This document shows positions 2,919-48,074 of a DNA stretch of 48,227 bases, piece after piece. The translations under genes were made by a program, and so were the position numbers. The stretch is from a virus: the IMG/VR virus record IMGVR_UViG_3300021197_001498, positions 1 through 48,227 of that record. One strand, given 5' to 3'. The notes beneath the pieces were generated by a model. The model worked only from the letters and a program-made list of their open reading frames with translations. It was not told the origin of the DNA and ran no database searches. The number at the start of each line of letters is the position of its first letter. Positions within the stretch are counted from its first letter, which is position 1.

Positions 2919-2924
2919 GAAAAG

Positions 2925-12310: not shown

Positions 12311-12447
12311 CAGTATCCCAGACGAGTTCGCTTCGGCTTACTGTAAGAGTTCTTGGCTACCTTCTTTGCCTCTTCCTTGGATCCGTGCATGGTCTTATTG
12401 CCGGTCTTCTTGTCGACGGTCGTCTTGCCTTTTGAATACTTGGGCAT
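12310..12447 (-). CDS. Tiny basic protein between two coupled genes
   Basis: 45 residues, MPKYSKGKTTVDKKTGNKTM...KPKRTRLGY, very rich in Lys. Its ATG overlaps the stop of the metallophosphoesterase (TGATG), and its own stop overlaps the next ATG in the same way, leaving no gap on either side. This coupling is the main evidence that it is real. Function is unknown. Confidence 0.65.
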   Translation of the reverse strand: MPKYSKGKTTVDKKTGNKTMHGSKEEAKKVAKNSYSKPKRTRLGY

Positions 12448-13226
12448 CAGTCTTTGTCCTTAACTAGGAGTTCTGCGTCCCACTCACGAGAGCGGAACCT
12501 GTGATTCTTGCCTATTTTACACTCACCCATGAGGATTCCGGCCCCCCATTGCGTGACATCTTTGCGTTTCATGTAGCCCGGCTGCGTATGGCCCATCCCA
12601 ATGCTTCCCACGTTGGCGTAGAAGTGGGGTAAAAGCACTTTTCCAGAGCGTTTAGCCTGCGTAACTGGCGTTGGACGGTGCGTATGGCCCCTTACCGTGA
12701 GGCGCCAAGCGTGCCCGCCAGTCATGTAGTTCATTTGCAGCCCCTCCAGTTCATCGGAGTTCTGGGCGCAATCGAATCCGTGGTAGAAAAGGACCTGCCC
12801 CAAGGCGTACGTCCCGGACTTGCTCTTGACGTATGGGATCTGCTTCCACCTCTTGAACTCAGGCCCATATTCAGGGTGGCTGTTCCAGTGCACAAGGGAT
12901 CTTAGGTTACGGGGTATCCTGCGGGCGTCGTTGGCCAAGATATTGTCATCGTGGTTGCCAAGGCACCAGATCAGTTTGCACCCTCTGGGCAGGGCCGACC
13001 TGATATCTCTGAGGTACTCGGATCCCTGCCGATACTCGTCTTCGAGGACATGGAGTGCTTCATCAGGGTGCACCGATGCAGCAGCAGCGTCAAGAAGATC
13101 ACCAAGAACAACAAAATGCGTGAGGCCTCTACCCTTGATTTGGGACAGGAGCCATTCCTTGGTGTTGGGATCCGCGTGTGGTACATGTATGCAACTTACC
13201 GCCGCGAACTTTGCTAAATTAGACAT
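12447..13226 (-). CDS. Metallophosphoesterase (calcineurin-like)
   Basis: 259 residues with the calcineurin-type order: SCIHVPH (11-17), GDLLD (42-46), GNHDD (90-94), a His near 149 (FYHGFD) and GHTHRP (180-185). Such enzymes hydrolyse phosphomono- or diesters with two metal ions; phage examples act on nucleic acids, nucleotides or small signalling molecules. The first motif is normally D-x-H, but here Asp is replaced by Cys (S-C-I-H), which removes one usual metal ligand. All other motifs are intact. It lies 5 bp after the giant gene and is coupled to the small basic genes. Confidence 0.88.
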   Translation of the reverse strand: MSNLAKFAAVSCIHVPHADPNTKEWLLSQIKGRGLTHFVVLGDLLDAAAASVHPDEALHVLEDEYRQGSEYLRDIRSALPRGCKLIWCLGNHDDNILANDARRIPRNLRSLVHWNSHPEYGPEFKRWKQIPYVKSKSGTYALGQVLFYHGFDCAQNSDELEGLQMNYMTGGHAWRLTVRGHTHRPTPVTQAKRSGKVLLPHFYANVGSIGMGHTQPGYMKRKDVTQWGAGILMGECKIGKNHRFRSREWDAELLVKDKD

Positions 13227-13231
13227 GGTTG

Positions 13232-16200
13232 CTACCGAGTAGCAGGCTGGATAGGCACGTTTCGGCCCGGGCTAGGTAGCCCCTCTTGCCTCAACATTCC
13301 TCCCTCTCGATTAAACTCAGGCCAAAGTTCCTTGGGAACTCTGTGCCGGATGCCTGAATGCCAGAGCGTGCGGTATTGATCAATGATCCGCATTCCAATG
13401 GCTTCAGCCCTTTCCTCATCTCCTTCATTCATGGCTCGGTTGACTTGTCTCCTCAGGAGTTTGATCTCCTCGGACTTGTCAACGCTGATTTGGGCCTGAA
13501 GTTTGTCGATGTCCAGCGGTTGCCACCGCCCCCTTACCGCCAAACGCCACAACAGGCCTTCGGTTCCATCTCTCGTGAGGGACCTTTCGAGGCCCTTCCA
13601 ACTATTATAGTAACCTATTTGGTTGGCCACGTACTGGGTGATTGAGATCTCCCCGAGATCAGGGTCACCTATCTTGCGGCCATCGAATACCTGCTGTCCT
13701 GTGCCCATTTCAAAAACGGACTTCAAGATAGGAGAGGACGACCCAATGAAGTAGTGGATCATATCCTTGAAGCCTTCGGTCCCGAATACCCCTTGGCCAG
13801 TCATGATTAGATCTTGGACCGGGACGAGGCTCGACAATACCAGACCCTTCGCAGTCCCGTCGTCACTGCTCGTCTGGATCATTAACTGGTTTCGCATCCA
13901 TCTTGGGAGCATGAATATGGGGACTCGGTCCTCTTCATCGAGCCCCTCGACTTCCATCGCGTGCTTGAGTTTCGTCCAGAAGTTTGCGTATGCCGGCTTC
14001 TCAAACAGCATCTTGTATTGGAGTGCAATGTTGTTTCTTTGCCAAGCGTAGAAGGGGATGACCCTACGGCCAATGGTTTCCTCGTACTTCGTGAAATCAC
14101 CATAATCGAAGTGCGCCTTCTTCATGGTAAGGGCAGCGTCTTCAAGCATGTCCCCCTTGTCCCTGCGTGCAAGATACACGGCCGTCCTGAAGGTGTCATC
14201 GATAGAAGCGTTCAACTTGAACCACCACGCTCCCACGGGGCCGAGCGTCGCGATGTTTCGCACTTGGTCCATGACCGTCTTCTTGGCGTATGCGTCTGGG
14301 TTCCCGAATGCTGTTCGGTGGAGGCTCATTACCTCTCTTGCAACCTGACTTCCATCCAACGCATTGATTCGTACGAGGTGCTCAGCGAGTTGGGTCTCGG
14401 TCATTTCCTCGCCCGCGACGACGTACTTCTTGGCATCATCGAACATTAGACCCGGGCCGGTTGGGATAAACCCACCCTTTTGGTTCCCGAAGTGGAATGC
14501 GTGAGCCATCCGTCGTGCAGCGGGCAAGTGTTTCGCAAAGTCTGAGAGGTTCATCCCCCCCACGACAACTGAGTGGATAATCCCGCCAAGGACATTGACG
14601 GTTGTCCAAGCGGGGTTCATGAGCACTGAGCCCTTCCACATGGACTGGACGTAATCGAACGCCCTTCCGATTGTCGTTAGGTTCTGGTCATCCGATATCT
14701 TGGTGACATAGTCCTCAAGAGCAGAGGCCACATCTTCTGGGTAGTAGTGGGTCTTCGAGGTCGATCCGACGAGGCGGTCAAACATTCGGTTGTTTGCAAC
14801 CTCGTTGCTCAGCCTTCGATATGGGATCCCGTTGATGATCAGGTCGTTGCCACCCTTGGTTACTGTTGTGCCCTGCCTTGGGTTTGTCACCGCGTCGTTG
14901 ACTTCATCAATGGAGAGTGCTTTCATCTCCGGCATGATGTTCCTGACGAAATCTGCAACGGAGGCGGTCCTGTGGTGCTCTCGAACTCTCTTCCCAAGGA
15001 GGATGCCAAGGTCAGTTTCCCAGACTTGACCCTTGTATTCGTTGCCTACCATGTCAGCAAATCGATGCGACATCTCAGGCCTATTCAATTCAAAGGGGCT
15101 CGTGGCGTACGGCTTAGGCATCCACGCGGGACCGTTGGCATTCCCAATTGCATCTCCTGACCACCCGGGTGTTGGCATGTATTGGTCGGGAGACCCGCCA
15201 GCATCCCTGATTCCGACGTTGTAGTCATATATGTCTTTTGCCAACATCTCCTCGGGGTTTTCTCTCAGGTATGCGGTGCGGTACGCTTCAAACTCTTCTG
15301 GAAGAGGTCGGCTGCCTACCTGTCCAGCCCAGATGAAATCCCACCCTTCTCCAGTTTCAGGATCTGTCCAATAGGGGTTGGGGTTGTCGGTCTTATAGAA
15401 GTATCTGTTCGTCGCACGATGCTGAGAAGCCGGGCCCTCCCCGCTGATCTTCTTGCCAGAGGCAGCGGCGTCCCTTAGTTCTCTGGTTTTAGCGCTCTGA
15501 GCCCAAGCGGCCTTCTGTGCGTCTTCTGTCAACCTTAGTCCGATGTAGGCGAATCTGGGATCTGCAATCTGCAAGGCGCCATCGGATGACTCTTTGATCA
15601 GAAATTCCCTCTGCATCTCTTGGGCCTTTTTCGCCAGCCTCTCGACCTGCGGGTCATTCCAGACTTTCTCCCGCCCACCATATCTGTCCATGACCTGATT
15701 AAGGTTGCCCTCTTCCTTGGCGTCAAAGATCTTCTCGCCCGGGTGGTAGCCGTACACGTCTCCGGCCTTGGCGTCCACCTCGATTATCTTGGCGTGAAGG
15801 ATAAGGCTCGCATCTTCAGCGTTCATGTTGTATCTGTCTCTGATGAACCCGACGCTCTTGTCGTAATCCTCAAAGAAGATCCTTCGATGAAACTCGGGTA
15901 CGTTCTCGTTTGCGTATCTTAACGAGGAGACCAATTGGCCTGCATATTTCCCACGTCGGCCGGCCCCGGAAAGGTCCCTGAATATCCTGTTGTACTTCTC
16001 GCTGACCTCAGACCCCTTGTGGAGCATGGTCGACTTGAGCCCATCAAGTTCTTCTTGGATCGGGACTGCTGCCTCCTTGCGTGCATCGAGAGCCATGCTC
16101 ATCTTCTCATCTGTGTCGCTGATCAGATCGTTTTTCTTAGCCACCCGGGCCCTTACTGCGTTCTGTTTCTTTTCACCGCTTCTTTTGGCTGCCTTGAGAG

Positions 16201-19200
16201 ACCTTATTCTTCTGGAGGCCGCCTTGCTTTCCTTCGTGGCTCCAAACATCTCATCAAGTGCTCTCCTCAGGGACCCGTTAATCGGCTTGTCGTAGGAGGA
16301 CTCATATATCTTCCGCATTGCTCCGCCAATGGCTTCGAATGCGTCATCTAATTCTGGGACCGGGGACTTACCTTGCATGTATGCCATGAATGCTTGAGCA
16401 AAATCCTCCTCTGACGCCTCGTCCCACTCGTCGAAGATGCCGTATCTTGCCTCAAGGGCATCTTGGGCTTCATCAGACAGGCCGTTCCGGCGGAGGACAT
16501 GGCCTACCTCGTGAACAAACGATCCGATGTCCGGCTGATTTAGTGCCCTGATGAGGGAATGGCCATCCTCCGTGAACTCAACCGATGCTCGGGCCATGTC
16601 CCCCTCACCCATCTGGAACAACATCGATCCCTTGCGGCCCATCCTGCTATCCAAGGTACGGCGTCTAGAGGTGTTCTCGGTAAACTTATACGCATCTCTT
16701 GTGAGGGCTCCGCCATCGTCCAAGTCTCTTGAGTATAGGATCTCTTGCTTCTCAAACAGGGGGAGGCCGTCTGCTCGACCCGCGGTTTCAGTGAGGATCT
16801 CAGGGACCACCTCGTCAATCTTCTCAATGTGCGCTGCAAGGCCGGGATTCAGAGTACCTCTGGTGGGCGTCATCATGTTCGACTTGAGCCCCGTAATCGA
16901 CGCGGGATTGACGAGGAGTTTTTCATCAATACTGACTTTGAGACCCTTGTTGAAATTACCCCCAACCCCAACAAGTGCGTGCATAAAGTCGATGTCACCA
17001 AGTTTCCCCCTCATGACATTGGACATGTCCCCAAGGTTTGTCGTTTCAGGAGTCACCTTGTACAGGGTGCCCTTTTCGTCGGCAACTACAGTGAATGACG
17101 AAGCGGACTCATCTGGGTGATCATTAATCACCTTTGAGGTCCCCGGCGCCGGAGGAGAATCTATGCCTTTGAGATAGTCGTCGTCGACTTTCTCAAGTCC
17201 AAGGTAGTTAAACCCATAGTCCTTACCTCCTTTATGGGGCAAAGGGAGGAGGTGCATGTTCTCTTTTGACGCTGCCTTTAATTGACGCTGTTGAATTTCG
17301 GTTATAGAAAAATTAGGATCATCCACGCGGGCCATCCATCCTTGGAGGGCTCCTCCGGTCAGTTCCTCTACCACAAATTTATCAGGGGTAATGACCCCAT
17401 CGTATCCTTCCTTCGCGGCATGGCTCAATATCCTTCGGGCGGACAGTTTCACCCACTGGCTTATTGGCCGACCGCTTGGCAAAGTTAGGTCGGCCGGGTT
17501 TGCAAACGGCATCGCCGGGGTGCTGTGTTGTACTCTGGCGGACACCAAACTTTCTGCCAGCAACAACGAACTATCGTCTCCCCCTTCGGACATTACGCTG
17601 GACCTCCAAGCGTAATATCTCTCTAGTGCCAAATCAAAGTCCTTGTCCCTCCAGCCGCTCTTCCTGATTACGGCGACGGCTTCTTCTGGGATTAACCCGG
17701 ACCTTGCGATTACATCTACAAAGCCCTGATTGATGCCCTCAATCTTGTCCGCCACGGCTTTCCTGAGTTCAAGATTTTCGTACAAGATATTTTTCAAGTC
17801 ATCTTTGTAACGATCTGAAAGAATGCTTTGCTGGAACAGGTCGGACTGGATTTCCTCAATTTGCAGGTATCGCTTTGCGGATGGAGAGATGTTTAAATCC
17901 GCACCCCTGTCCGTGAACCTTACCCATCCGATCGCCCCGGGGATGCTTGCGAAGTGTTCGCCTTGTTTGCTTCTCAATTGCATTGCAAACGCAATGGGGT
18001 GTTTCTGGATCATTTGCGGGGACATGGTGAGGAACATGTTCCTTCCTATCACGCCCCCCTCAGTGTATTCGCTGTACTGACGCGAAGCCTCGTAGGCGTC
18101 ACGCGTCATTTGTTCCGGTGTTTTGTTCTCAAAGAACTTCCGGGCATCTCGGTAAATTTCTAGGTTCTTCAGTCTTCTATCCAACTCAACCTGTTGGCTC
18201 GGGGGAAGTTCATGGATCATGTAGGCGCGGGTGTCGCGAATGCCGAACTCAGATGAGAGGAGCCTGTACCTTTCCCGGTTTCTCTCCAGTGCTTCCATGC
18301 TTTTTCCCGACATCCTACTTTCGGCTGAGACGACATGCTTGGACGATCTATGTCGCAAGTGTGCCGGCATGGATTCAAGGATGGATTTTATCTGGGAAGT
18401 TTCTTCCTCTACGGCGAAGGCAATGGACTTTATCTGTTCCTTGATAACCTGCGGGCTGAACATTCTTTGCAGTTGAGCGGGATCAGAAAAGTCGGTGAGT
18501 TGAATCCCCATTTGGTGGGACAGGAGGAAGTCCTCTATCTCCTTCCCAGAAATAACTTCAGCCTTGTTCGACTCAAGAAAGTCCAAGAGGCCAGAGTTAA
18601 CCAACTCATCTTCTGGAACACGAAGCGGATCTCCGGCCCTGCCAAGTACCTTGCCGGTCCCCTTCTCCACGTCCGCACGCGTCCTCTTAAATGGCCATGG
18701 GCTAGTTTGATCGACCATAGAAGAGTTCTTTTTGTTCCCCTTCAAGCGGAACCAATCGAGCCAGTCTTCTGACTTCATGGGTCCCATGGCCTTGAGCGAC
18801 TGAACCGCGTTTATTGTCCCGTACTCCATAATGACCTGAGAGGGGAGTTGGCCAGTCAGTTGCATCTCGCTGATCATTTCCCTCCTCAACGCCGCCGCTT
18901 GCTCCCCAATAGGATCAGCGCCGTTGGGTCGGAAGGGGCGGAAGGATTCTGTCTGGGGGAAGTCATGGATTCGATCGATTTCCCGGAGGAGGTTCCTTTT
19001 TGCGACTTTCTCTGCCGCTTCTTTGCCACCTTCTTTGAGGGCTTGCTCGATTGCTTCTTGGCTCGGCGAGAACCGCCGGATCCTCCCTGTTTGCTCTTTC
19101 GTGATTTCTGCATTCTCTAGTCCTCTCAGTTGTTTTCTTAGTGCCTTGAATTCTTTCCTGTTGTCGCCGAACACCATTACGGTGCCGTCCTCAAGGGTTG

Positions 19201-22200
19201 TCGAATCAAGGTTTTCGCCAAGATTTAGGGAAGATGCGTCCGCGTTCTTGATAGTTAGAACCTGCGCACCGCCCTTGCCCGGGATAAACGCTGAAACATC
19301 GCTGTGGTTACCGAGGAATCCGTTTACCAACGAGGAATAGTAGATCTCTTCCTCGGACATGCTCTGGTTGATGGAGATGACGTTCGCCGGTACGGCGTCA
19401 CCCGCCTGATTCACAGTGGTACCCGTACGCATTGTTGCGTTCGTTACGCCAGCGTGCGACATTACCTGCTCGGCCGAAGCCTTCCACTTCGAGTCTCTGC
19501 CATCAGGGCTAAGAGTGTGAATCATGTGAACCTCAGAGTCCTCTGGCGTGATTCGACCGCCCTGATACAAGACCTCCCTACCTTCAGGAGTCTTTCCGCC
19601 CCGCATGACTTGGAACTGCTCATTCAGCCAGTCCTCTCTGCTTCCAGCCCTGCCCTTTGTTCTCTCATACCAATTGTCAGCAAGGGCATCGAGCACTTTG
19701 GTGAGGTGTTCAGCCTCTTCGTCTGTCAGGTCGAATGCTTCTGCCGCCCTCCTGCCCACTGCCACCGCTTCGGCGGAAGGCGTGCGGAGTTCGCCCAAGA
19801 TATCCGCAGACTCTTCCGCTATATCTTGAAGCCTCTGCTCGATTTCCTTGAGTTCAGTTGCATCCTCCCTTGCCCCGTGAACAAGTGCCTTCTTCCTGCC
19901 TTCAAGGCTCCTCTGAACCAGCCTCTCCTCTCTCCTGAGTGCAGAAAGGCGATTGTTCAGGTTGTAAACCTTAGAGTTGTGCCCATCAAATAGCCGGGAC
20001 ATGAACCCCGGTCCTTCAAACATCCCGACGCCTTGGGCATAAAAGTCTCCCCGGACCTCATCAATAGCATCAAGGACTACACTGGTCCTCGGCGTGAGTA
20101 GATCGTCGATCTCATCCAGAGATAGGTCTCTTCTCTTGAGGGCGTACCTCATGTCCGCCTCTGCCTCCGTGACCCTATTTGAAAGGTCACGAAGTTCATC
20201 TAGTTTTTCTTCCGGGATAGGGGGAAGACCCTCGCCTATGACGACCGAAGACTTTGCATCCTTTTCCGCAGCCCTCCAAGACGCCGCACTCTCCTCGTAA
20301 GCGTCTGCCATTTGCCTGTAGTGGACTTCTTCCTCGAACAATCGGACTGAGTCGGCTACTACATCTACCTCGTCCATCCTCTGTCGAGACAAAAGTGCCG
20401 TCTCAAGTCTCATGGTGTCGAATACAAACTCGGCTGTGACCTCACCGCCGTCTACTGACCAGCCCTTCTGGCCCTTGATGTACATGTAAGAGGAGTGATC
20501 CATCTCTGTGACCGGGATCACGATTTCGTTCTTGTAGCCCTTCGATGACTCGACTACTTGTGCCTTAGCCCTCACTGCCGGGGGGAGCGTATCAAGCACT
20601 CTTGCCGTTTCTTCCGCCGCCGCTTCAGCCGTCCTGCCCACAATCGTCGCTCTTGCCATAACAGACTCGAACCGACCCAACTCCGCTGCGTTTTCTGCCG
20701 CAATCGCTGTACGCTTCGCGGCTTCCGCGGCCCCGAATATGCTTTCAGGGTCGCCGAGTTGTTTCATGGCCTTGTACTTGCGAGCGGTATCCCCTATTCG
20801 GAGGGAGGGGATCGATATGTTGGTCCCGACATTCCGGTAGCCAATCCTCTTCCACAGAAGCGGTGCCATCCAGTCCATGAATGGGACATGAAACTGGTAC
20901 CCGGCCTTTGCTTGGAATCTTTGGAAGAACTCCTGAGACGTCTCTACCGCCGCCACGATATCGTCATTCTTATTTGACACGGTCCCGAGGCTTCGGTACG
21001 TGATGTACCTGTCTCTGGCCTTATTCACAATGGCGTCCCGTGCGATTTTTTTCTGCTTCCGGGTCATGTTGGTCGCGTTGCCAACAGCCTCGACTGCCTC
21101 ATCAATCCTTCCCAAGTGGTTCAAGCCCTTGGAGATATCTTGGGCAGCGGCGCCGGTGACCCCATTGTCGACCACGATAGTGTGGTTAAGGAAGTCTTCG
21201 AACTGTTTGTATTGCGAACTCTCTGGGAGAACGATTCTGGTCACGACCCCCGCGTCATTCTTAATCACGCTTCCCTTTTCAAGCAACTCAGTAGACGCAT
21301 CTTTCAGCCACTTGACCCCTCGGGTTTCGACTGGAATTCGTGCTGCGCGGGAGGCGTATATCCCGGCCTTTCCTGTCCTCGCACCCCACGATGCAATGGT
21401 TCCGGGCCCTGTCGCATAGGACAGCGGGTCCAGTAAGATATCTCCGGCGAGACCCAGTATTGCCCTCGCTGTCTTGTTCTCTACTCCCAGTGTGTGTAGG
21501 ACTTCCGACGCATAGACCCGCCTCATCCCAAAGGCTGCTCTCGCCTCCTCTTCACTCGATATCCGAATCTGCTTCTTGTCCTCTTGACTCAAGGTGGCGT
21601 GTCCAATGATGGACGCCGGCCCGAGCACCACATTGTAGAGGCCGAATCCTGAGGCGGCCCCAACGGCAGCAGCACCGGTCCCCGCTGCAAGTGCACCGAT
21701 TCCTGCCCCGGCAGCAATGCCAATAGGGCCCCCGGGAATGCCTGCTATCGCACCCTTCGCCGCTCCAAAAATCGTTCCAATTGCCGCCCCGCCGGCAGCC
21801 ATAAGGCCAGCACCGAGAGCGTAGTCTTCCAGATCGCCCTTGTCGGTAAATGCAATGTTGAATACCGAGTTTCTGGGCAGGTCAATGAGATCGAGGAACT
21901 TGTAGAAAGAACCCCTCTGGTCTCCCATGACATCTAGTCCCGACTGTTCGATCCTCGACCTCATCTCATTCCGAGACATGCCGTTGATCTGTCCAATCGT
22001 AAGCCGAGGAGTCCTCCTCTGGTTAAGAACCGTCTGGGGAACGGGGTTATCTTGGGTATTCTTCATGATCCCAGCGTCAATTAATTCCTGACGCCTCTGC
22101 CGCATCGACTCTTGAGCCGACTGCTTCATGAGAACACCGCGCATTGCCATCTCCTCATTCCGCCTCCGCTGCTCCTCGTTGTCGGGGAGTTTGGGGACGG

Positions 22201-22285
22201 TGCGAGCAATGTTATGCGCACCCTGAGTCACGTCGTTCAGGAAGTTCTGGTTAAGAAACTCCTGCGGTCCAATGAATTGAGTCAT
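13232..22285 (-). CDS. Giant polyvalent virion protein
   Basis: 3017 residues, nearly a fifth of the window. Residues 1-150 are charged. Residues 157-228 are Gly/Ala-rich and hydrophobic (GAGLMAAGGAAIGTIFGAAKG...), a likely membrane-inserting segment. Long helical stretches follow. Around 1450-1640 is a module with GWVRFTDRG, YLQIEEIQSDLF (about 1474-1485) and AAKEGYDGVITPDKF (about 1620), a pattern I know from large polyvalent phage and mobile-element proteins. HEVGH at 1925-1929 is a zinc metallopeptidase motif. The C-terminus (about 2600-2850) has FDYGDFTKYEETIGRRVIPFYAWQRNN, typical of the closing domain of such proteins. Likely ejected with the genome, acting in membrane crossing and defence; function is inferred. 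Confidence 0.85.
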   Translation of the reverse strand: MTQFIGPQEFLNQNFLNDVTQGAHNIARTVPKLPDNEEQRRRNEEMAMRGVLMKQSAQESMRQRRQELIDAGIMKNTQDNPVPQTVLNQRRTPRLTIGQINGMSRNEMRSRIEQSGLDVMGDQRGSFYKFLDLIDLPRNSVFNIAFTDKGDLEDYALGAGLMAAGGAAIGTIFGAAKGAIAGIPGGPIGIAAGAGIGALAAGTGAAAVGAASGFGLYNVVLGPASIIGHATLSQEDKKQIRISSEEEARAAFGMRRVYASEVLHTLGVENKTARAILGLAGDILLDPLSYATGPGTIASWGARTGKAGIYASRAARIPVETRGVKWLKDASTELLEKGSVIKNDAGVVTRIVLPESSQYKQFEDFLNHTIVVDNGVTGAAAQDISKGLNHLGRIDEAVEAVGNATNMTRKQKKIARDAIVNKARDRYITYRSLGTVSNKNDDIVAAVETSQEFFQRFQAKAGYQFHVPFMDWMAPLLWKRIGYRNVGTNISIPSLRIGDTARKYKAMKQLGDPESIFGAAEAAKRTAIAAENAAELGRFESVMARATIVGRTAEAAAEETARVLDTLPPAVRAKAQVVESSKGYKNEIVIPVTEMDHSSYMYIKGQKGWSVDGGEVTAEFVFDTMRLETALLSRQRMDEVDVVADSVRLFEEEVHYRQMADAYEESAASWRAAEKDAKSSVVIGEGLPPIPEEKLDELRDLSNRVTEAEADMRYALKRRDLSLDEIDDLLTPRTSVVLDAIDEVRGDFYAQGVGMFEGPGFMSRLFDGHNSKVYNLNNRLSALRREERLVQRSLEGRKKALVHGAREDATELKEIEQRLQDIAEESADILGELRTPSAEAVAVGRRAAEAFDLTDEEAEHLTKVLDALADNWYERTKGRAGSREDWLNEQFQVMRGGKTPEGREVLYQGGRITPEDSEVHMIHTLSPDGRDSKWKASAEQVMSHAGVTNATMRTGTTVNQAGDAVPANVISINQSMSEEEIYYSSLVNGFLGNHSDVSAFIPGKGGAQVLTIKNADASSLNLGENLDSTTLEDGTVMVFGDNRKEFKALRKQLRGLENAEITKEQTGRIRRFSPSQEAIEQALKEGGKEAAEKVAKRNLLREIDRIHDFPQTESFRPFRPNGADPIGEQAAALRREMISEMQLTGQLPSQVIMEYGTINAVQSLKAMGPMKSEDWLDWFRLKGNKKNSSMVDQTSPWPFKRTRADVEKGTGKVLGRAGDPLRVPEDELVNSGLLDFLESNKAEVISGKEIEDFLLSHQMGIQLTDFSDPAQLQRMFSPQVIKEQIKSIAFAVEEETSQIKSILESMPAHLRHRSSKHVVSAESRMSGKSMEALERNRERYRLLSSEFGIRDTRAYMIHELPPSQQVELDRRLKNLEIYRDARKFFENKTPEQMTRDAYEASRQYSEYTEGGVIGRNMFLTMSPQMIQKHPIAFAMQLRSKQGEHFASIPGAIGWVRFTDRGADLNISPSAKRYLQIEEIQSDLFQQSILSDRYKDDLKNILYENLELRKAVADKIEGINQGFVDVIARSGLIPEEAVAVIRKSGWRDKDFDLALERYYAWRSSVMSEGGDDSSLLLAESLVSARVQHSTPAMPFANPADLTLPSGRPISQWVKLSARRILSHAAKEGYDGVITPDKFVVEELTGGALQGWMARVDDPNFSITEIQQRQLKAASKENMHLLPLPHKGGKDYGFNYLGLEKVDDDYLKGIDSPPAPGTSKVINDHPDESASSFTVVADEKGTLYKVTPETTNLGDMSNVMRGKLGDIDFMHALVGVGGNFNKGLKVSIDEKLLVNPASITGLKSNMMTPTRGTLNPGLAAHIEKIDEVVPEILTETAGRADGLPLFEKQEILYSRDLDDGGALTRDAYKFTENTSRRRTLDSRMGRKGSMLFQMGEGDMARASVEFTEDGHSLIRALNQPDIGSFVHEVGHVLRRNGLSDEAQDALEARYGIFDEWDEASEEDFAQAFMAYMQGKSPVPELDDAFEAIGGAMRKIYESSYDKPINGSLRRALDEMFGATKESKAASRRIRSLKAAKRSGEKKQNAVRARVAKKNDLISDTDEKMSMALDARKEAAVPIQEELDGLKSTMLHKGSEVSEKYNRIFRDLSGAGRRGKYAGQLVSSLRYANENVPEFHRRIFFEDYDKSVGFIRDRYNMNAEDASLILHAKIIEVDAKAGDVYGYHPGEKIFDAKEEGNLNQVMDRYGGREKVWNDPQVERLAKKAQEMQREFLIKESSDGALQIADPRFAYIGLRLTEDAQKAAWAQSAKTRELRDAAASGKKISGEGPASQHRATNRYFYKTDNPNPYWTDPETGEGWDFIWAGQVGSRPLPEEFEAYRTAYLRENPEEMLAKDIYDYNVGIRDAGGSPDQYMPTPGWSGDAIGNANGPAWMPKPYATSPFELNRPEMSHRFADMVGNEYKGQVWETDLGILLGKRVREHHRTASVADFVRNIMPEMKALSIDEVNDAVTNPRQGTTVTKGGNDLIINGIPYRRLSNEVANNRMFDRLVGSTSKTHYYPEDVASALEDYVTKISDDQNLTTIGRAFDYVQSMWKGSVLMNPAWTTVNVLGGIIHSVVVGGMNLSDFAKHLPAARRMAHAFHFGNQKGGFIPTGPGLMFDDAKKYVVAGEEMTETQLAEHLVRINALDGSQVAREVMSLHRTAFGNPDAYAKKTVMDQVRNIATLGPVGAWWFKLNASIDDTFRTAVYLARRDKGDMLEDAALTMKKAHFDYGDFTKYEETIGRRVIPFYAWQRNNIALQYKMLFEKPAYANFWTKLKHAMEVEGLDEEDRVPIFMLPRWMRNQLMIQTSSDDGTAKGLVLSSLVPVQDLIMTGQGVFGTEGFKDMIHYFIGSSSPILKSVFEMGTGQQVFDGRKIGDPDLGEISITQYVANQIGYYNSWKGLERSLTRDGTEGLLWRLAVRGRWQPLDIDKLQAQISVDKSEEIKLLRRQVNRAMNEGDEERAEAIGMRIIDQYRTLWHSGIRHRVPKELWPEFNREGGMLRQEGLPSPGRNVPIQPATR

Positions 22286-22288
22286 TTT

Positions 22289-24712
22289 TTACTGATTCCG
22301 TCTTGGTGTGGTCTGTCGAAATCTAGAAGGCCTTTGCCCGTCGACGTTCCTGTACTCTGTGTTGTAGGTCCGAAGGGCTTCCGAGTCCACGTCGCCGCCA
22401 GTGGCAATTGTTTGGATCAATGAATACCCCGCGGACCTCGCATCATCCATTTGGTCAGCAAGGGTCACTCCAAACGTAATGCCCAGTCCCACCGGGTCAA
22501 ACGTATCGTCATAGCCGGCGTCAGTTAATCGCTGTCCAAGGTCTGCCGCTGCCTGCTGAGCAGCCTCCCTGTCTTCCATGGTTGCGAGTTCATGGATGGC
22601 TTGGTCCATGCTGGACAAGTATCCCCGTTGGACCCGCTCGGTGTTTTCGGCCATATAGAACCCAAGCCAATCAGACTGAATATCACCGAATGGTTCAATC
22701 CAATCCATCGGAGTGTCGAGGGAGATGATCTTCTCTGCCGAGCGTGCACCGCTAGACGTGCGTCGTTCGCCGATCATCTTGTCGGCGTTCTCAAGGACCG
22801 TCGGGTCAATCATCTCGCTGATCATGGGGTCGACCGAGGCGAGTTCGCCCACCAACTGAGAAACAGTGAACGTACCCTGTGATGCTGCCGCGGCCTGAAC
22901 GACCATGGTCAAAAGTTCTGCCTTGTTCAATTCGCCTCGTTTGGCAAATTGGGTTTCGGCAAATGCCTGTGCCGTTTTCTTGAGATCCAACTCTCCTTGG
23001 GCGATCTTGGCCATGGTGTTTTTGTATTCATTGTCGTTCGAAAGCGCCGTCGCGGCGTTGTTCAACTCTTTCTCTCTTAGACCAGAGGTTCGTTCAAACT
23101 CCTGAATCGCGCGAAGGTTTGTGGCATCAAACTGCCTGCCTTGCTGTTCAAGTTGTGCGATCTGTGCGTCGTAGGATCGCTGTGATTCCTCACCCTGCTG
23201 AGCCAGAGCCTTCCTTTGGAGGTCCCTGTCTGCCGCGGCAATTCGTTCCGGCGCTGAAATTGCTTCGGTTTCCGCTTGCACCCTCTGGTACTCAGGCACA
23301 GACATTCCCGCTTCGAAGGCTTCTCTCTCAAGTCGATCTCGTTCTCTACGCTGCTGCCGCTCACCACGCTCTCGTCCACGTCGCTGCTCGAACATCTCTT
23401 GTTGACGGTCACGAATGCCTTCGCGTCGTTCTTCCATCTGGTCGAGGTCAAGCATGCCACGATCACGGCGTCTCTGGTTCAGAGCCTCTCGACCCGCCAT
23501 TCGTACGGCGTCCGCTTCGGTGCGTCCAAGAGGATCGCCCTTCATCAGTTCACCAGCACGCTTGTCGATGGCCTCTTCGCCGTATCGGCGACGAGTGAGG
23601 TTCATGTCGTACTGTTCTCCTGTCGGAAGGTGATCAAGTCTCGGGTCGGCCATGTCTTCTGGGCGACTGACTGCGACTTGCTGAGTACGCATCTGCGCCT
23701 GAAGGGCCTGAATGTGTTCCGGAGATCCTCGGCCAAACTGTTCCATGACACGGTTCGGATCTTCAGGTGCACGCTCGGGCGGCAAGATACCGCGAATGGG
23801 TTGGCCAAACTGATTGGTCGGAGGGGCCGCTGGGGCCGGGGTCGGTGGTCCCATGGGCCCGGGCTCAGGTTGGATTGCCTGCGGCTCAGGGGGCATGATG
23901 GTCTGGGGCACTGGGCTGGTTTGTCCCGGCATGACGTTTCGGTCACGCAACCTGTCAAACGGATTCATTTGAATTGGTGCGGGCGTATTTTGCTGGACCT
24001 GAAGGGGCCCCCTGTTGGCAACTCCCTCGTTGAACGCCTGAGGTGCGGGCGCCTGAGGTGCGGGCGCCTGAATTTCGTCGGACGGGAAGTCGTACTCAGC
24101 GGGGTCCAATGTTTGTGGCCGTGGAGCAATGCTTTGAATAGCCGCTTGCTCTTGGGCAATCTGTTCCTGAATCCTCTTTTGGCCTTGGGAGTACAACTCA
24201 TCCATGGGGCCGCCTGCGCCCTGAGGCGAGGGGGCCATGTTGGCCTGCATCCTGCCCTGCTCCCGGTCAATCTGAGATTCATACCTTGGAACTTCACGTC
24301 CCAACCTCTGCTGGTCGAACTCGCGGACGCTTGCATCGCGTCGATCACGGATACCTTGCCGCATAGACTCCTGCTCTTGAGGAGTGGGGGAAGGTGTCTG
24401 TGGCGGGGCGAGTGCCTGTCGGCGTTCTGGGTCTGCCATACCCATAATGGGGGGCAGATTGTTCCGAGCCTGCATGCTGGGGTCTGATATAGCAGAGACG
24501 AGTTGCTGGCCAAGAGACATCTTGTTCCGACTTCCAACAGACCTAGTCGCCGGGTTCTGGGGCGTAGGGTTGAACATCTGATTGACGCCAGCAGGTGGCT
24601 GCTGCTCCGGCGGAACATCAGGGAACACGGGGTAGATTGGGTCTTCGGGCTTACCGTTCTTTCGCTTCTTATTGGGGTTGTCCCGCCCGTCTGTCTTACG
24701 CTGCCTAGCCAT
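22289..24712 (-). CDS. Pro/Gln-rich coiled-coil virion protein
   Basis: 807 residues. The first 380 are disordered and rich in Pro, Gln and Arg. Residues 380-600 are strongly charged helices (RRDRGMLDLDQMEERREGIRDRQ..., ELEQQGRQFDATNLRAIQEFERT), a long coiled coil. The last 200 are a more ordered helical domain. It sits 3 bp upstream of the giant gene and probably works with it as an internal or ejection protein; no family is recognised. ATG 24712 follows the previous stop by one base (TGAtATG); an in-frame start at 24790 would overlap that gene. Confidence 0.7.
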   Translation of the reverse strand: MARQRKTDGRDNPNKKRKNGKPEDPIYPVFPDVPPEQQPPAGVNQMFNPTPQNPATRSVGSRNKMSLGQQLVSAISDPSMQARNNLPPIMGMADPERRQALAPPQTPSPTPQEQESMRQGIRDRRDASVREFDQQRLGREVPRYESQIDREQGRMQANMAPSPQGAGGPMDELYSQGQKRIQEQIAQEQAAIQSIAPRPQTLDPAEYDFPSDEIQAPAPQAPAPQAFNEGVANRGPLQVQQNTPAPIQMNPFDRLRDRNVMPGQTSPVPQTIMPPEPQAIQPEPGPMGPPTPAPAAPPTNQFGQPIRGILPPERAPEDPNRVMEQFGRGSPEHIQALQAQMRTQQVAVSRPEDMADPRLDHLPTGEQYDMNLTRRRYGEEAIDKRAGELMKGDPLGRTEADAVRMAGREALNQRRRDRGMLDLDQMEERREGIRDRQQEMFEQRRGRERGERQQRRERDRLEREAFEAGMSVPEYQRVQAETEAISAPERIAAADRDLQRKALAQQGEESQRSYDAQIAQLEQQGRQFDATNLRAIQEFERTSGLREKELNNAATALSNDNEYKNTMAKIAQGELDLKKTAQAFAETQFAKRGELNKAELLTMVVQAAAASQGTFTVSQLVGELASVDPMISEMIDPTVLENADKMIGERRTSSGARSAEKIISLDTPMDWIEPFGDIQSDWLGFYMAENTERVQRGYLSSMDQAIHELATMEDREAAQQAAADLGQRLTDAGYDDTFDPVGLGITFGVTLADQMDDARSAGYSLIQTIATGGDVDSEALRTYNTEYRNVDGQRPSRFRQTTPRRNQ

Positions 24713-24713
24713 A

Positions 24714-25064
24714 TCAATATCCGCCAATCTGAGTTCGACGCCTGTTGGGGTCTTCTGTTCTAGTGGGCCTAGCCAGTGGGCTGGCCGCACGTTGAGGAGT
24801 TCCTTGGTTTACTTGGGGGCCTATACCTTGGCCCCTTCGGCCGACCATGTCTGGTGGGGGTAGTGGCTGGGGCCTATTGCCGGTCATTCCAGCGCCTGAA
24901 ACAAACGACGGAGCGCTGCCCACCGGCGCTCCGTCTTGCCCCATGACGTAGTCTGACATGCCCGGAGTCATATACTGACGGGGCGGCGGAACCGGAGGGG
25001 ACTGCCCTACGGCCGAGGCCCCTTGGGCCATCATAAGGTCGAATATGTTTACTGGGGTTGCCAT
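24714..25064 (-). CDS. Pro/Gly-rich small virion protein
   Basis: 116 residues. A short hydrophobic start (MATPVNIFDLMMAQGASAVG) is followed by low-complexity Pro, Gly and Gln sequence (PPVPPPRQYMTPGM, NRPQPLPPPDMVGRRGQG). No family is recognised. Its composition resembles the N-terminal part of the next gene, with which it is tightly coupled, so the two may belong to one assembly. Confidence 0.6.
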   Translation of the reverse strand: MATPVNIFDLMMAQGASAVGQSPPVPPPRQYMTPGMSDYVMGQDGAPVGSAPSFVSGAGMTGNRPQPLPPPDMVGRRGQGIGPQVNQGTPQRAASPLARPTRTEDPNRRRTQIGGY

Positions 25065-25096: not shown

Positions 25097-25450
25097 CTAT
25101 TTCTTCTTCTTTTTACTGTGGAACGGGACCCACTTATTCAGGGCCGCTTGCCTCTTCTTGCACCCACAGTCCTCCTTGGCCTCGATTCCAGTCGTGACCT
25201 TGATTGTCTTGGCCACGAGGTCTCCGAGTCCCCTCATACCTTGGTCCTCCTCGGCCATCTCATTCAATGTTTCGGACGGCTTGAGCCTGTCTGCCATACT
25301 GAAGTCCTCTCCAAAGTGTTCTTTCCCTACCTTGTCTATCTCTTCCTCAGTCGCCACGCTTCCGTCGCCCGATCCCCTGTATTCGTGGAACTTCCTGTTC
25401 GCCATAGCGAAAGCAGATAACACATCCATTGCTTGTTTCTTTATCTTCAA
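25097..25450 (-). CDS. CxCKKR-type phage protein, probable TTG start
   Basis: 117 residues with a helical start (AMDVLSAFAMANRKFHEYRG), an acidic middle, and a C-terminal EDCGCKKRQAALNKWVPF followed by six terminal residues, five of them Lys. The 'CGCKKR---LN' motif recurs in small phage proteins whose Cys pair may bind metal. The start is uncertain. TTG 25450 overlaps the previous stop (TTGA) and has ACGAGG a few bases upstream. ATG 25537 would overlap the previous gene by 91 nt without a proper site, and ATG 25429 has no site. If TTG is right, it lies inside a TTATCTTG copy, as in the first gene. Confidence 0.6.
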   Translation of the reverse strand: MKIKKQAMDVLSAFAMANRKFHEYRGSGDGSVATEEEIDKVGKEHFGEDFSMADRLKPSETLNEMAEEDQGMRGLGDLVAKTIKVTTGIEAKEDCGCKKRQAALNKWVPFHSKKKKK

Positions 25451-27332: not shown

Positions 27333-29762
27333 TTACCTTCCGGGGCTAGGGACTGCCGCCATGATGTTCGGGCCGTCGTCAGTCTTGGGGTCTTCGTCGT
27401 AAGCGACATCAATCATCGCTCGATTCAATTCGAATACTCCGTCTTCCGATTCGATCCTGACCCTCACGTACTTGCCTCTCATACCTTGGAAGATAGGAGT
27501 GGCGATTCTCTGCCCCTCGTTAGAAGATATGACCTGCGTCTTTTCTTCGACGTACTTGTAGACTGAGTTGGCTTGAATATCACTGGGATTGTCGAACGTG
27601 CTGACTCGAAGAGTTATGTCTCCCGACCTGTATCCAAGATCCAGCACGACCTCTCCGAGTTGCTTGACTAGATTTGGATTCTCGTTTACCCACATCTCAA
27701 CGCACGATGTGACTGAAGAGGACTCAGTTCCACTGGGTGCAGAGACCGAGGGGTCATACTTGTAGCAGGTTCCACCAAGCCACAGGAAGAATGAGTATCC
27801 GTCATCCCCCCTGTGAGAGATCATGTAATCAACCTCTTGGTTTGATCCGGGGCTGGTCAGCATGTTGTCTGGGGTTACCTTCTGGTCAGAACCAAGCCAC
27901 CACTCGGAGGTGAACCCGTCGCCAATGTCGTGCATGAGAACGCGGTGGCGATCAGTTGTGCCTGTCACCGGGAACGTCATGATGACCTTCTTGCAATCTT
28001 CGATGAGACCGATGCGTACGGACTTCTTCTGCTCGGTAGTCAGAGGATCCAGCCACCCGTCGAACTTGAGTTCTCTCAGGATCTCAACAGCCTTGCCGCC
28101 CTTGAACCAGACTGGTCCCTCGTCAGCCACGTACATGACACCACTTGAGGTGGGGTGTATGGACTTGTGCGTCACGACCCCCGGCCCGCCAATATCTTGA
28201 ATCTGAGGAGAGCCATTGAATCCCAGTTGGTAGATCGATTGCCTAGTAAACAGGAGAGATGCGCCCCCGCTGTTCGCGGTGTACATCGGCTCTCCCTTGA
28301 GCGTTGGCAGGGGGGAGAAGGTCTCCTTCTGGTTGTAGGAGTTCCTCCCAATCTGCTCTGGGTGATTGACGCTGTACTCAATGCCGGGCCTGTGGTCTCC
28401 TGTCTCGTTGTAGGCTATTCCGTTGCCCGAGTTTGTCCCGCTGTATGTCCACCTGTTGCTGGATTCGAGAGAGGTGACCTGAAGCGGGAACAGGTAGAGA
28501 GCCGTGCCGCCGGGCAAGATAGCCATGGCCTTCGAGGGGACCGGCATCTCGTATTGCTCCGTGTACCTACCGGAGTCGGCGAGTGTTGCTTGATCCTTGA
28601 ACAGGCATATCTTGCCACCCGTATCTCCACAGTCCACGGACTGTGCCGGCGTGTTACTGGACTGAATGAGATCCTCAAGGAACATCATGTCCGTGAGGTG
28701 GTCCGACATTCCATGGACCTCGTTGTACAGAATGACTGACCAGAAGTCTTCTCCGGGTATCTTGACTGTCATTACTTCCTGACCCGGAGAGCACCACACC
28801 GCAAGTCCGAGGTCCTCGACACCGGTTGGTGGATTCACCCGGATGTGGTACTGGTACATCGCGTACTGATCTCGGTTGGGACCGAAGTTGATGACTGACT
28901 TTGGCTCGCATGCTCGGCCGAAGATCCCTCTCTTGGGATCGTAGTACCCGACCTTGAATGCACAGTTGAGTATCTTCTCTCCTCGTGAGTTCTGCCCAGC
29001 AGAGTTGGCGACGTGCCAACAGAACGTGCCACCCAGTGTCCCCTGTTGGGGCATGCACAAGAATGTCTTGTCTCCCTCGGGGCACGGGGAGGAATCGGTG
29101 CAGTTGGCGCCCGACTGGCAACCGATGTCTACAGTGTCCCCGAATCCGCAGTTGCCATTCCAACTCCCATCCGCACCCTCGGTTCCACAGCAATAGAGCC
29201 CACTCGATGGGGTCCTTACTCCATCGCTGCTTTGGCAGTAGTAGCCGCAGTAATCAGTGGCCCCCGCAAAGTCGACAGCAGTGTGGATGGTCGGCTCGTC
29301 TCCAGAGTAATCTCCGAACAGTCCCGGGACGCCTATGTTTCTGGATACAGCACCGTCATAAGAGAATAGGGCGTAGCCCTCCTCCCCACTTTGGCAGTAG
29401 TAAACCTCTCCTCCGTACACAGAGAAGAAGCCCGGAGACTCCGGGGAAACATTTCCCCACGTACCCGGAGTAACCATGTCTGAGGTTGTCACGCCTCCGG
29501 GCGCCTTGATCTTCAGTTGGTCACCGACCTGCATAATCAAGTCGGATCCGCTGCTGCTATTCACAAGGTGAGCGGTAACGTGCGACTCCGGTGGGTTACA
29601 GTCGAGTCCTCCAGTGAAGCCCCGTCTGGTTCGTATCGTCTTCTCTGGAGTGAGTTCCATGTTGACCACGCGAGTGACCGGGTTCTCACCCAACTCCGGG
29701 CGGATGGGCTGCTGACTAAAAGCATTCCATACGACCGGTCTGAACTGCCTGCTGCCTGCCAT
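27333..29762 (-). CDS. Tail nozzle-like beta-propeller protein
   Basis: 809 residues, mostly short beta strands. It starts with WNAFSQQPIRPEL, then RVVNMELTPEKTIRTRRGF, the kind of opening seen in phage tail nozzle or hub proteins that recount a sequence of 'ground truth' strands around a propeller. Repeats of LLFTRQSIYQLGFNG, SSGVMYVADEGPVWF and YSFFLWLGGTCYKYD fit blades. Residues about 168-265 form a Cys-rich insert (DYCGYYC, LYCC, CTDSSPC). Podoviruses carry such a protein (T7 gp12, P22 gp10) beneath the adaptor, and here it follows an adaptor-like gene. The class is inferred from position and strand pattern. Confidence 0.65.
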   Translation of the reverse strand: MAGSRQFRPVVWNAFSQQPIRPELGENPVTRVVNMELTPEKTIRTRRGFTGGLDCNPPESHVTAHLVNSSSGSDLIMQVGDQLKIKAPGGVTTSDMVTPGTWGNVSPESPGFFSVYGGEVYYCQSGEEGYALFSYDGAVSRNIGVPGLFGDYSGDEPTIHTAVDFAGATDYCGYYCQSSDGVRTPSSGLYCCGTEGADGSWNGNCGFGDTVDIGCQSGANCTDSSPCPEGDKTFLCMPQQGTLGGTFCWHVANSAGQNSRGEKILNCAFKVGYYDPKRGIFGRACEPKSVINFGPNRDQYAMYQYHIRVNPPTGVEDLGLAVWCSPGQEVMTVKIPGEDFWSVILYNEVHGMSDHLTDMMFLEDLIQSSNTPAQSVDCGDTGGKICLFKDQATLADSGRYTEQYEMPVPSKAMAILPGGTALYLFPLQVTSLESSNRWTYSGTNSGNGIAYNETGDHRPGIEYSVNHPEQIGRNSYNQKETFSPLPTLKGEPMYTANSGGASLLFTRQSIYQLGFNGSPQIQDIGGPGVVTHKSIHPTSSGVMYVADEGPVWFKGGKAVEILRELKFDGWLDPLTTEQKKSVRIGLIEDCKKVIMTFPVTGTTDRHRVLMHDIGDGFTSEWWLGSDQKVTPDNMLTSPGSNQEVDYMISHRGDDGYSFFLWLGGTCYKYDPSVSAPSGTESSSVTSCVEMWVNENPNLVKQLGEVVLDLGYRSGDITLRVSTFDNPSDIQANSVYKYVEEKTQVISSNEGQRIATPIFQGMRGKYVRVRIESEDGVFELNRAMIDVAYDEDPKTDDGPNIMAAVPSPGR

Positions 29763-29765
29763 GGT

Positions 29766-30845
29766 TTACCCCATGCCGCCAAGGAAGCGGCCATTGAATG
29801 AGCGGAACTCTTTCTGGAATCTTGCTGGCTTATGATAAGCAGCGTTCCATTCGTTGGAACCAGTATCGTCGAACTCGGCGAGCATGCTTCGATAATCCTT
29901 CTCTACCTTGGACGCCCACATCCTCGCGTCTGAATCCTCTCCGAAGAGCATGAGCATTCTGGCTACGATGCGATCTCGAAGGTGCATCCTGAAGGATGAG
30001 GGGAGGTCGGAGATGGAAGCGTCTGTATCGGACGTTCCATCACACCTCGTGTACATGACCGCATACAGGCTGTACTCCTGATCGGGCTCGGGGAACCAAG
30101 AGATTGCCTGTGAGGATCCGCCGGGCTGCAAGTAGAAATACCTTGGCTTGCCCGTGCTCTCGCCGTCATAGTGAGCCATGAGTTCAGCCCACCTCGTGGA
30201 GTCCTTCCAATGCACCTCAGTGACATTGTTGGTGGAGTCCTTGAGGTAGATAATCTTGCTGGCAAAGCCGTCAAGGTTCCCCATGTCGGTGCTCGCTGAA
30301 ACGCTTCCCGTAGTAGCGAGGGTCATCTTGATTGGCTTTCGCCTGAACCTCCACTTGCGAGAGTCCCAAAGCATGACGTGCTCTTCGACGATGGCCTTAT
30401 CCAAGACATCAATCGACGGGAACACGGGAGTAGGCTGCCGAACAAGTATGTCAATGACTGACTTGCGAATACCCTCGGCGGTAGTCGTGCTGACTCCAGA
30501 CGCAGTCTTGGACCAGTCATTGTCACTGGCGATAGTGCTGACTATTTGCCCCAAGAGAGATGCGATCGCGGTCTTGCGGAATGTGTCCGCATCTTGGACT
30601 GACCTGAACTGACGGATCAACCTCTCGGCCACCTCCAGTTCGATCAGTTCGACCCAAGCGTCATCACTGTCCGCGCCGCCGACGTACCCGTCTCCAACGG
30701 ACACGACGTACCACTTGCGAATCTCATCGACTCGCCGCTTAGCGTGACTGATGTACCCGGACCAAGGCTCGGAGCCAAGGTTTACGGGTACGTTTGTTGT
30801 CCTTCCGAATACTTCCTGAAGGATTCTGTCATGAGATATTGCCAT
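29766..30845 (-). CDS. Tail adaptor / head-completion-like protein
   Basis: 359 residues. The N-terminal half is helical (DRILQEVFGRTTN, DAWVELIELEVAERLIRQFRS, TFRKTAIASLLGQIVSTIASD); the C-terminal half has a beta region (WRFRRKPIKMTLATTGSVS) and ends in helices (FRMHLRDRIVARMLMLFGED). This order, and its place next to the nozzle-like gene, resemble podovirus adaptors (T7 gp11, P22 gp4) that extend the portal. Its ATG directly follows the stop of the preceding gene. Moderate confidence. Confidence 0.6.
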   Translation of the reverse strand: MAISHDRILQEVFGRTTNVPVNLGSEPWSGYISHAKRRVDEIRKWYVVSVGDGYVGGADSDDAWVELIELEVAERLIRQFRSVQDADTFRKTAIASLLGQIVSTIASDNDWSKTASGVSTTTAEGIRKSVIDILVRQPTPVFPSIDVLDKAIVEEHVMLWDSRKWRFRRKPIKMTLATTGSVSASTDMGNLDGFASKIIYLKDSTNNVTEVHWKDSTRWAELMAHYDGESTGKPRYFYLQPGGSSQAISWFPEPDQEYSLYAVMYTRCDGTSDTDASISDLPSSFRMHLRDRIVARMLMLFGEDSDARMWASKVEKDYRSMLAEFDDTGSNEWNAAYHKPARFQKEFRSFNGRFLGGMG

Positions 30846-47970: not shown

Positions 47971-48046
47971 CGTTGGATACTCCTGTTCGGAAGTGTGGGC
48001 ACCATTGCCCGGTTGTGTGATGCTCATCGACATGATGGGCATCCCC

Positions 48047-48074
48047 ACGATAGCACGATCCGGAGAATGTGCAA
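48047..48074 (-). promoter_or_regulatory. Probable rightmost early promoter, leftward
   Basis: On the minus strand TTGCAC (48069-48074) and TATCGT (48047-48052) are separated by 16 bp, the same spacer as the two perfect promoters. A start near 48040 gives a 70-nt leader to the AAA+ gene. The hexamers are weaker than consensus. Confidence 0.55.

What the first reader, a model, noticed from the sequence alone, without database searches (positions are those of the whole stretch)
13232..22285. A 3017-residue polyvalent protein in a 48-kb phage
Nearly a fifth of the genome is one gene. It joins a Gly/Ala-rich membrane-like segment, a module with IEEIQSD and EGYDGVI, a metallopeptidase motif HEVGH and the FDYGDFTKYE...IPFYAW end domain. 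These parts suggest a protein sent into the host with DNA, acting both in ejection and as early effector. The stretches between known parts (about 230-1440 and 1940-2580) are unassigned and may hide new enzyme domains.
Basis: partly seen in the sequence, partly recalled or inferred. Interest (0 to 1): 0.68.

Follow-up and report, generated by a model that had tools for sequence, protein, structure and literature searches.

The report
Giant cargo-carrying phage ejection protein
This very large phage protein is most likely stored in the phage head and pushed into the bacterium ahead of the DNA, carrying a protease and a second probable enzyme between two shared "delivery" ends, an arrangement like the giant RNA polymerase that phage N4 injects but with different cargo.

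Summary
In detail: one 3017-codon ORF on the minus strand (window 13232-22285, 18.8% of the contig). All the named parts are real homologous modules, not chance motifs. The C-terminal block (residues 2509-2890) matches a profile of 87 other phage proteins at 229 bits. That family includes gp26 of podophage A-4L (PDB 9k3a, E 1e-9) and, more weakly but consistently, the C-terminal domain of the N4 virion RNA polymerase. The EIQSD and HEVGH blocks match polyvalent-protein modules that occur in the same order elsewhere; the zinc ligands are intact. A short N-terminal module is shared with phage proteins of about 900 residues. In 63 complete relatives the C-domain sits at the C-terminus 62 times, while the N-to-C spacing varies from 19 to 2624 residues: a cargo slot. 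Best reading: a podoviral ejection ("pilot") protein of N4-vRNAP-like layout, without polymerase, carrying a zincin peptidase and a GNAT-like EIQSD module into the host. Ejection is inferred from homology and gene position; effector function is only predicted. Residues 301-1358 and 2015-2508 match only two sister phages and remain unassigned. New variant of a known kind.

The parts
13232..22285 (-). Gene of the 3017-aa giant protein
   Evidence: orthologues of 3539 and 3418 aa in L001 and L002
21386..22285 (-). Residues 1-300: N-terminal module; conserved core GMRRVYASEVLHTLGVENKTARAILGLAGDILLDPLSYATG (253-292)
   Evidence: window-family profile hits L212 (933-aa C-domain protein) at 36 bits and L168 at 22 bits; reciprocal profile hits L001 34.7, L002 27, window 17 bits
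21611..21823 (-). Residues 155-225: Gly/Ala-rich hydrophobic segment, possible membrane helices at 156-177 and 188-214
   Evidence: hydropathy only, modest peaks, not above the same threshold in the sisters
18212..21385 (-). Residues 301-1358: unassigned, conserved only in the two sister phages
   Evidence: region profiles find no significant relative outside L001/L002
16706..18211 (-). Residues 1359-1860: EIQSD module (profile match 1359-1633); EIQSD at 17840-17854, GYDGVI at 17390-17407
   Evidence: profile of 121 EIQSDWHQ proteins, 29 bits, E 5e-10; nearly all best structural rows are GNAT acetyltransferases, Z 5.0-6.2
16244..16612 (-). Residues 1892-2014: zincin-like metallopeptidase; HEVGH at 16499-16513, probable third zinc ligand E1960 at 16406-16408
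   Evidence: 49 bits; H1925, E1926, H1929 invariant in 18 sequences, E1960 at least 90%
14762..16243 (-). Residues 2015-2508: unassigned, conserved only in the two sister phages
13616..14761 (-). Residues 2509-2890: C-terminal delivery domain (IPFYxW, LPD38-like); FDYGDF at 14093-14110, IPFYAW at 14042-14059
   Evidence: 229 bits, E 9e-71; PDB 9k3a E 1e-9; AF2 pLDDT 82.7, pTM 0.79; BFVD Foldseek E 4.6e-10
22289..24790 (-). 833-aa Pro/Gln-rich gene directly upstream; same place as T7 gene 15 relative to gene 16
   Evidence: homologue at the same place in sister L363; role by position only
27333..30845 (-). 809-aa and 359-aa genes, probable short-tail (tubular/stabilisation-type) proteins
   Evidence: conserved in both sisters in the same order; very weak profile similarity of the 809-aa protein to the same-position gene API480_11

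Best explanation
The gene encodes a giant podoviral ejection ('pilot') protein. Its last ~400-500 residues form a widespread C-terminal domain that most likely anchors the protein in the internal core of the head; in N4 the C-terminal region is reported to be required for encapsidation. Its first ~300 residues, with a hydrophobic Gly/Ala segment, form a shared N-terminal module that most likely meets the host membrane on ejection. Between them lies a cargo slot of variable length. Here the slot carries a GNAT-like EIQSD module and a zincin peptidase. The protein would leave the head through the short tail before the DNA and refold in envelope and cytoplasm; the peptidase would then free the cargo or cut a host protein, and the EIQSD module would modify a host target early in infection. 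Shown here: module homologies, intact zinc site, constant ends and variable middle, gene position. Inferred: packaging, ejection, membrane role, cargo release and effector action.
For: C-domain profile 229 bits in the window; solved relative is podophage A-4L gp26, encoded just after the internal-protein genes; a cryo-EM paper on cyanopodophage A4 has a 'pentameric pre-ejectosome' in its title (reference seen; the link to 9k3a is my inference). N4 link: top structural rows are the N4 gp50 C-terminus; 42 N4-like sequences score a median 6.2-6.4 bits in one register, reversed controls -2.8 to -2.9; profile-profile E 5e-4 against 0.39 for the reversed control. N4 vRNAP is an ejection protein with a membrane-binding N-terminal domain. 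N-module shared with short C-domain proteins. 63 complete C-domain ORFs: domain at the C-terminus in 62, N-module in 57, spacing 19-2624 aa. EIQSD and peptidase modules recur together in independent polyvalent proteins, and with the C-domain in L132. Flanking gene order kept in both sisters.
Against: No virion proteomics or electron microscopy exists for this phage; podovirus identity rests on gene order and weak similarity of the tail genes. The N4 link is remote (best E about 2e-4; Z 4.5, barely above unrelated rows). No detectable similarity to T7 gp16. Hydrophobic segment is only modestly hydrophobic and does not pass the same threshold in the sisters. The window's EIQSD module lacks the family's usual WHQ.GR..GY continuation, so its activity is in doubt; sister L002 lacks the module.
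Confidence: 0.72

Rival explanations
1. A purely structural ejectosome protein. The peptidase only matures the protein by self-cleavage and the EIQSD block is a dead or structural remnant; there is no early effector role.
For: Many relatives of about 900 aa lack any cargo and presumably still work; the EIQSD block is missing in L002 and has lost its WHQ.GR..GY continuation in the window; Iyer et al. discuss self-processing by such peptidases.
Against: Zinc ligands are kept in all three sisters and in 18 aligned sequences. The window and its sisters carry some 2000 extra residues that phages without need do without. The EIQSD-peptidase tandem recurs in unrelated polyvalent proteins.
Confidence: 0.2
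2. A divergent virion RNA polymerase: the unassigned stretch 301-1358 hides an N4-type polymerase.
For: Same overall layout and size as N4 gp50 (3500 aa): membrane-type N-terminus, middle, zincin, C-terminal domain.
Against: N4 polymerase domain against the window family: no similarity (E about 1); no PHROG or Pfam polymerase hit.
Confidence: 0.04
3. Tail tape-measure protein of a long-tailed phage.
For: Length, and very weak PHROG 167 tape-measure similarity over residues 162-336 (E 0.36).
Against: That similarity lies in low-complexity sequence and is not significant; no tail-tube or tail-assembly family was found among the large neighbours; C-domain relatives in annotated genomes are mostly called podoviruses and lie last in the structural cluster.
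Confidence: 0.04

Closest known systems
Phage N4 virion RNA polymerase gp50 (3500 aa; Schitoviridae)
   Same: Giant single-chain protein, last gene of the structural cluster, membrane-type N-terminal domain, enzyme in the middle, HExxH zincin, homologous-looking C-terminal domain
   Different: No polymerase domain in the window; the peptidase belongs to a different clade (peptidase profile scores N4 at 1.7 bits); EIQSD module instead; C-domain similarity is remote
Anabaena podophage A-4L gp26 (PDB 9k3a, 1114 aa)
   Same: C-terminal domain, E 1e-9 over nearly the whole profile; encoded after the internal-protein genes
   Different: About a third of the length; no EIQSD or peptidase module
Phage-type polyvalent proteins (Iyer et al. 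2017, PMC5512222)
   Same: EIQSD-then-peptidase tandem, LPD38-like end domain, unlike activities in one chain
   Different: Pfam models LPD38, MPTase-PolyVal and ART-PolyVal do not match
T7 gp16 internal virion protein (1318 aa)
   Same: Position as the largest and last internal protein; presumed inner-membrane and cytoplasmic part of the ejectosome
   Different: No sequence similarity, no transglycosylase hit; more than twice as long (published gp16-like range 609-1337 aa, PMC8954989)

Membership tests
Phage-type polyvalent protein | Several unrelated domains with different activities in one polypeptide | tested here: met
   EIQSD module, zincin and C-domain all matched by profiles that exclude the window family; the activities themselves are predicted
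Phage-type polyvalent protein | Encoded among virion genes | tested here: met
   Same contig cluster as terminase and portal; neighbouring order kept in sisters
Phage-type polyvalent protein | Packaged and injected with the DNA | not testable with these tools
   Needs virion proteomics
LPD38 (PF18857) | Match to the Pfam model above cut-off | tested here: not met
   No match in G000 even at E 10; the model works in L091 and L123
LPD38 superfamily in the wide sense | Same fold, and same position after the shared first half of the domain | tested here: inconclusive
   Predicted structures named LPD38 match at E 6e-3 and 9e-3, other LPD-named ones at 5e-10; in L123 LPD38 follows the part matched by the C-domain profile
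N4-type virion RNA polymerase | Single-chain RNA polymerase domain | tested here: not met
   no PHROG or Pfam polymerase match
N4-type virion RNA polymerase | C-terminal domain homologous to N4 residues about 3190-3430 | tested here: inconclusive
   Consistent weak scores, one register, reversed controls negative; Z 4.5
Zincin metallopeptidase | HExxH plus a third ligand downstream | tested here: met
   H1925, E1926, H1929 invariant; E1960 at least 90% conserved in 18 sequences
Zincin metallopeptidase | Proteolytic activity | not testable with these tools
   Needs an assay with an E1926A control
GNAT acetyltransferase (EIQSD module) | GNAT fold | tested here: inconclusive
   Best 50 rows nearly all GNAT or GNAT-like, but Z only 5.0-6.2 on a model with pLDDT 65.5
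GNAT acetyltransferase (EIQSD module) | Acetyl-CoA binding and transfer | not testable with these tools
   Needs protein; the window lacks the family's WHQ.GR..GY stretch after EIQSD
T7 gp16-like internal virion protein | Sequence homology to gp16 | tested here: not met
   C-domain profile scores T7 gp16 at -1.2 bits; best N-module domain 2.4 bits
T7 gp16-like internal virion protein | Largest and last gene of the internal-protein cluster | tested here: inconclusive
   Gene order fits and is kept in the sisters, but tail-gene identities are weak

The most novel reading that the evidence does not exclude
The N-module and C-domain form a general phage delivery chassis found in many short-tailed phages. 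Enzymes placed between them are packed in the head and pushed into the host. The N4 virion RNA polymerase is one instance of this chassis; the window family is another, with the polymerase replaced by an exchangeable peptidase and GNAT-like cargo, and the loss or replacement of the EIQSD block in sister L002 is cargo exchange.
Probability: 0.45. Interest if true: 0.75.

Novelty: new variant of a known kind. Interest (0 to 1): 0.58.

Why it matters
It ties together three separately described things: podoviral inner-core ejection proteins, the injected N4 RNA polymerase, and polyvalent conflict proteins. They appear to share a C-terminal domain for which the podoviral branch has no Pfam model. 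If that domain is a packaging and ejection tag, it gives a sequence handle for finding proteins that phages inject and for testing how proteins are loaded into heads and threaded through short tails. It also places a very common but unnamed module (EIQSD, 120 or more loci at a capped scan) near the GNAT fold.

Tried and rejected
Whole-protein Pfam, PHROG, PDB and phage tblastn searches: no significant hit. Tape-measure reading: only E 0.36 in low-complexity sequence. N4 polymerase domain: no similarity. LPD38, ART-PolyVal and MPTase-PolyVal Pfam models searched directly: no match. GTDB genome contigs: 55 pattern matches, none a relative; metagenome scan not available. Foldseek against the PDB for both models: no confident match; the membrane-transporter rows for the C-domain have TM-scores near 0.1 and are treated as noise; 9k3a itself did not appear among the structure rows. 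Profile of the EIQSD-peptidase alignment against PDB sequences: nothing significant. Roseobacter phage CRP-603: weak tblastn hit not confirmed by the profile. An ART-like block in sister L002 is a reading by eye; no Pfam match and no relative found. Tail-gene assignment of the 809- and 359-aa neighbours: only weak support. The window family's own three sequences against N4: no signal (E 0.26); the link needs the wide family.

Full report
OBSERVATION. The ORF is real, but on the minus strand: 13232-22285, ATG, 3017 aa, 18.8% of the contig. Pfam, PHROGs, the PDB and 50,697 phage records give no significant hit for the whole protein. Two IMG/VR contigs of nearly the same size (49.5 and 50.6 kb) carry orthologues of 3539 and 3418 aa. 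Residues 1-1263 and 1862-3017 are conserved in L001 (49% and 64%); in L002, 1-908 and 1874-3014 (33% and 48%). The block between is rearranged or replaced.

C-TERMINAL DOMAIN. A DNA pattern for VIPFYAW and then a looser one pulled about 120 large proteins out of viral contigs, nearly all with DY..LT.FE+...R.IPFYTW.RKN near the C-terminus. A profile of 87 of these, built without the window family, hits window residues 2509-2890 with 229 bits, E 9e-71. It also hits Paenibacillus phage API480 and Manatee Spring phages that were not in the profile. The PDB has one relative by sequence: 9k3a chain A, E 1e-9 over nearly the whole domain. Its sequence is identical to Anabaena podophage A-4L gp26, whose gene follows the internal-protein genes. 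No Pfam model recognises any of 55 members in a meaningful way; PHROG 19395 ('tail fiber protein; host specificity', 25 members) and 36598 do. The AF2 model is good (pLDDT 82.7, pTM 0.79). Predicted viral structures match at up to E 4.6e-10, many named 'large polyvalent protein associated domain-containing', two named LPD38. The Pfam LPD38 model itself does not match the window. In L123 it matches just after the stretch hit by the C-domain profile, and in L091 likewise, so LPD38 is probably the second half of a diverged version of the same domain.

LINK TO N4. Among solved structures re-aligned to the model the top rows are N4 vRNAP gp50, residues 3217-3500, its extreme C-terminus (Z 4.5, rmsd 5.3-6.5 over 175-202 residues). 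Alone that is weak, since unrelated transporters reach 4.3. Independently, N4 gp50 carries TEEFINYDRLPGRFRGYMESMGLMWFYNFKIRSIKVAMSMIRNNP near its end, which lines up with MKKAHFDYGDFTKYEETIGRRVIPFYAWQRNNIALQYKMLFEKP. Across 42 diverse N4-like sequences the two profiles score a median of 6.2 and 6.4 bits (23 and 27 sequences at or above 5 bits; best E 8e-4 and 2e-4) and end at the same place in nearly all listed, while reversed sequences score about -2.8 and none reaches 5. Profile-profile comparison gives E 5e-4 without the window family and 0.39 for the reversed control. I take homology as likely, not proven. For N4, the N-terminal domain enters membranes and the polymerase is an ejection protein (PMC12633501). 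[quoted passage not shown]

N-TERMINAL MODULE. A profile of the window family's N-terminus hits the N-termini of ~900-aa C-domain proteins, best L212 (36 bits), through GVENK..R...GLAGDILLDP..Y. The reciprocal profile hits L001, L002 and, weakly, the window (34.7, 27, 17 bits). The window's hydrophobic peaks lie at 156-177 and 188-214 and are modest; the sisters do not pass the same threshold.

CARGO SLOT. In 63 complete C-domain ORFs the domain ends within 250 residues of the C-terminus in 62 (median 42 residues left). 57 of the 63 also have the N-module, and the gap between the two ranges from 19 to 2624 residues, median 206. Part of these sequences trained the profiles, so presence of the modules is partly by construction; the spacing is not. 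The window family is the largest in the set.

EIQSD MODULE. EIQSDWHQ occurs in at least 120 viral contigs (capped scan). A profile from 121 such sequences hits window 1359-1633 (E 5e-10) and L001 (E 6e-14) but not L002. The consensus runs HF..PN.LAH.R..DR...GK..L..EEIQSDWHQ.GR..GY ... VPDAPFK..W.ELA.KR....AAENGYD. The model of residues 1370-2030 is of moderate quality (pLDDT 65.5), yet the 50 best structural rows are nearly all GNAT acetyltransferases or GNAT-like domains, Z 5.0-6.2. I call it GNAT-like, unproven. Iyer et al. list GNATs among polyvalent domains. The window lacks the WHQ.GR..GY continuation, so its activity is in doubt.

PEPTIDASE. A profile from three unrelated polyvalent proteins hits window 1892-2014 with 49 bits and L001 with 70. 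Across 18 sequences H1925, E1926 and H1929 are invariant and E1960 is at least 90% conserved. The EIQSD-then-peptidase tandem recurs in 13 other proteins, and L132 has EIQSD, peptidase and C-domain in the same order, though its HExxH is lost. In L005 a peptidase-like domain is a separate gene directly upstream of the C-domain gene: a split version of the same team. Iyer et al. propose that such peptidases process the protein or attack host proteins.

NEIGHBOURHOOD. Terminase, portal and probable capsid genes lie on the plus strand. The giant gene ends a minus-strand series of 833, 116, 146, (458, variable), 167, 809, 359 and 207 aa whose order is kept in the sisters wherever homologues are detectable. 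This resembles the order tail tube, internal proteins, largest last in T7 and A-4L, but family evidence for the tail genes is weak.

MECHANISM AND LIMITS. The best reading is an ejection protein with a delivery frame (N-module and C-domain) and enzymatic cargo. Homology and anatomy are shown; packaging, ejection, membrane insertion, processing and effector action are inferred. I rate it a new variant of a known kind; the general chassis idea is what would matter most if true.

Noticed in passing
L002 protein residues 1299-1435: By eye an ADP-ribosyltransferase-like block (TVYHGGDE ... RGYDVIPYVNTVEDKGSISYVI) stands in the sister protein that lacks the EIQSD module; the ART-PolyVal Pfam model does not match.
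   Followed up: partly
L005:9443-11194 (+): Separate 583-aa gene with an HEPLH peptidase-like domain (28.5 bits) directly upstream of an IPFYAW-domain gene: a split version of the architecture.
   Followed up: partly
L132:2046-7262 (-): 1738-aa protein with EIQSD, peptidase and C-domain in the window's order, but the peptidase has lost HExxH (RGISRV in its place).
   Followed up: no
L063:2309-12598 (-): 3429-aa protein with two EIQSD modules flanking one peptidase domain.
   Followed up: no
window 25447-26823 (-): Very cysteine-rich 458-aa ORF inside the tail/internal gene cluster with no homologue found in either sister contig; no Pfam or PHROG hit.
   Followed up: no
window 12447-13226 (-): Metallophosphoesterase gene (PHROG 221, E 3e-11) directly downstream of the giant gene, kept there in both sisters.
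   Followed up: no
window 46402-48048 (-): 548-aa AAA-type ATPase ORF matching PHROG 249, named porphyrin biosynthesis (E 1e-30).
   Followed up: no
whole window: No close relative among isolates: portal and giant protein have no tblastn hit, terminase only distant ones; with L001 and L002 it looks like an undescribed phage group.
   Followed up: partly
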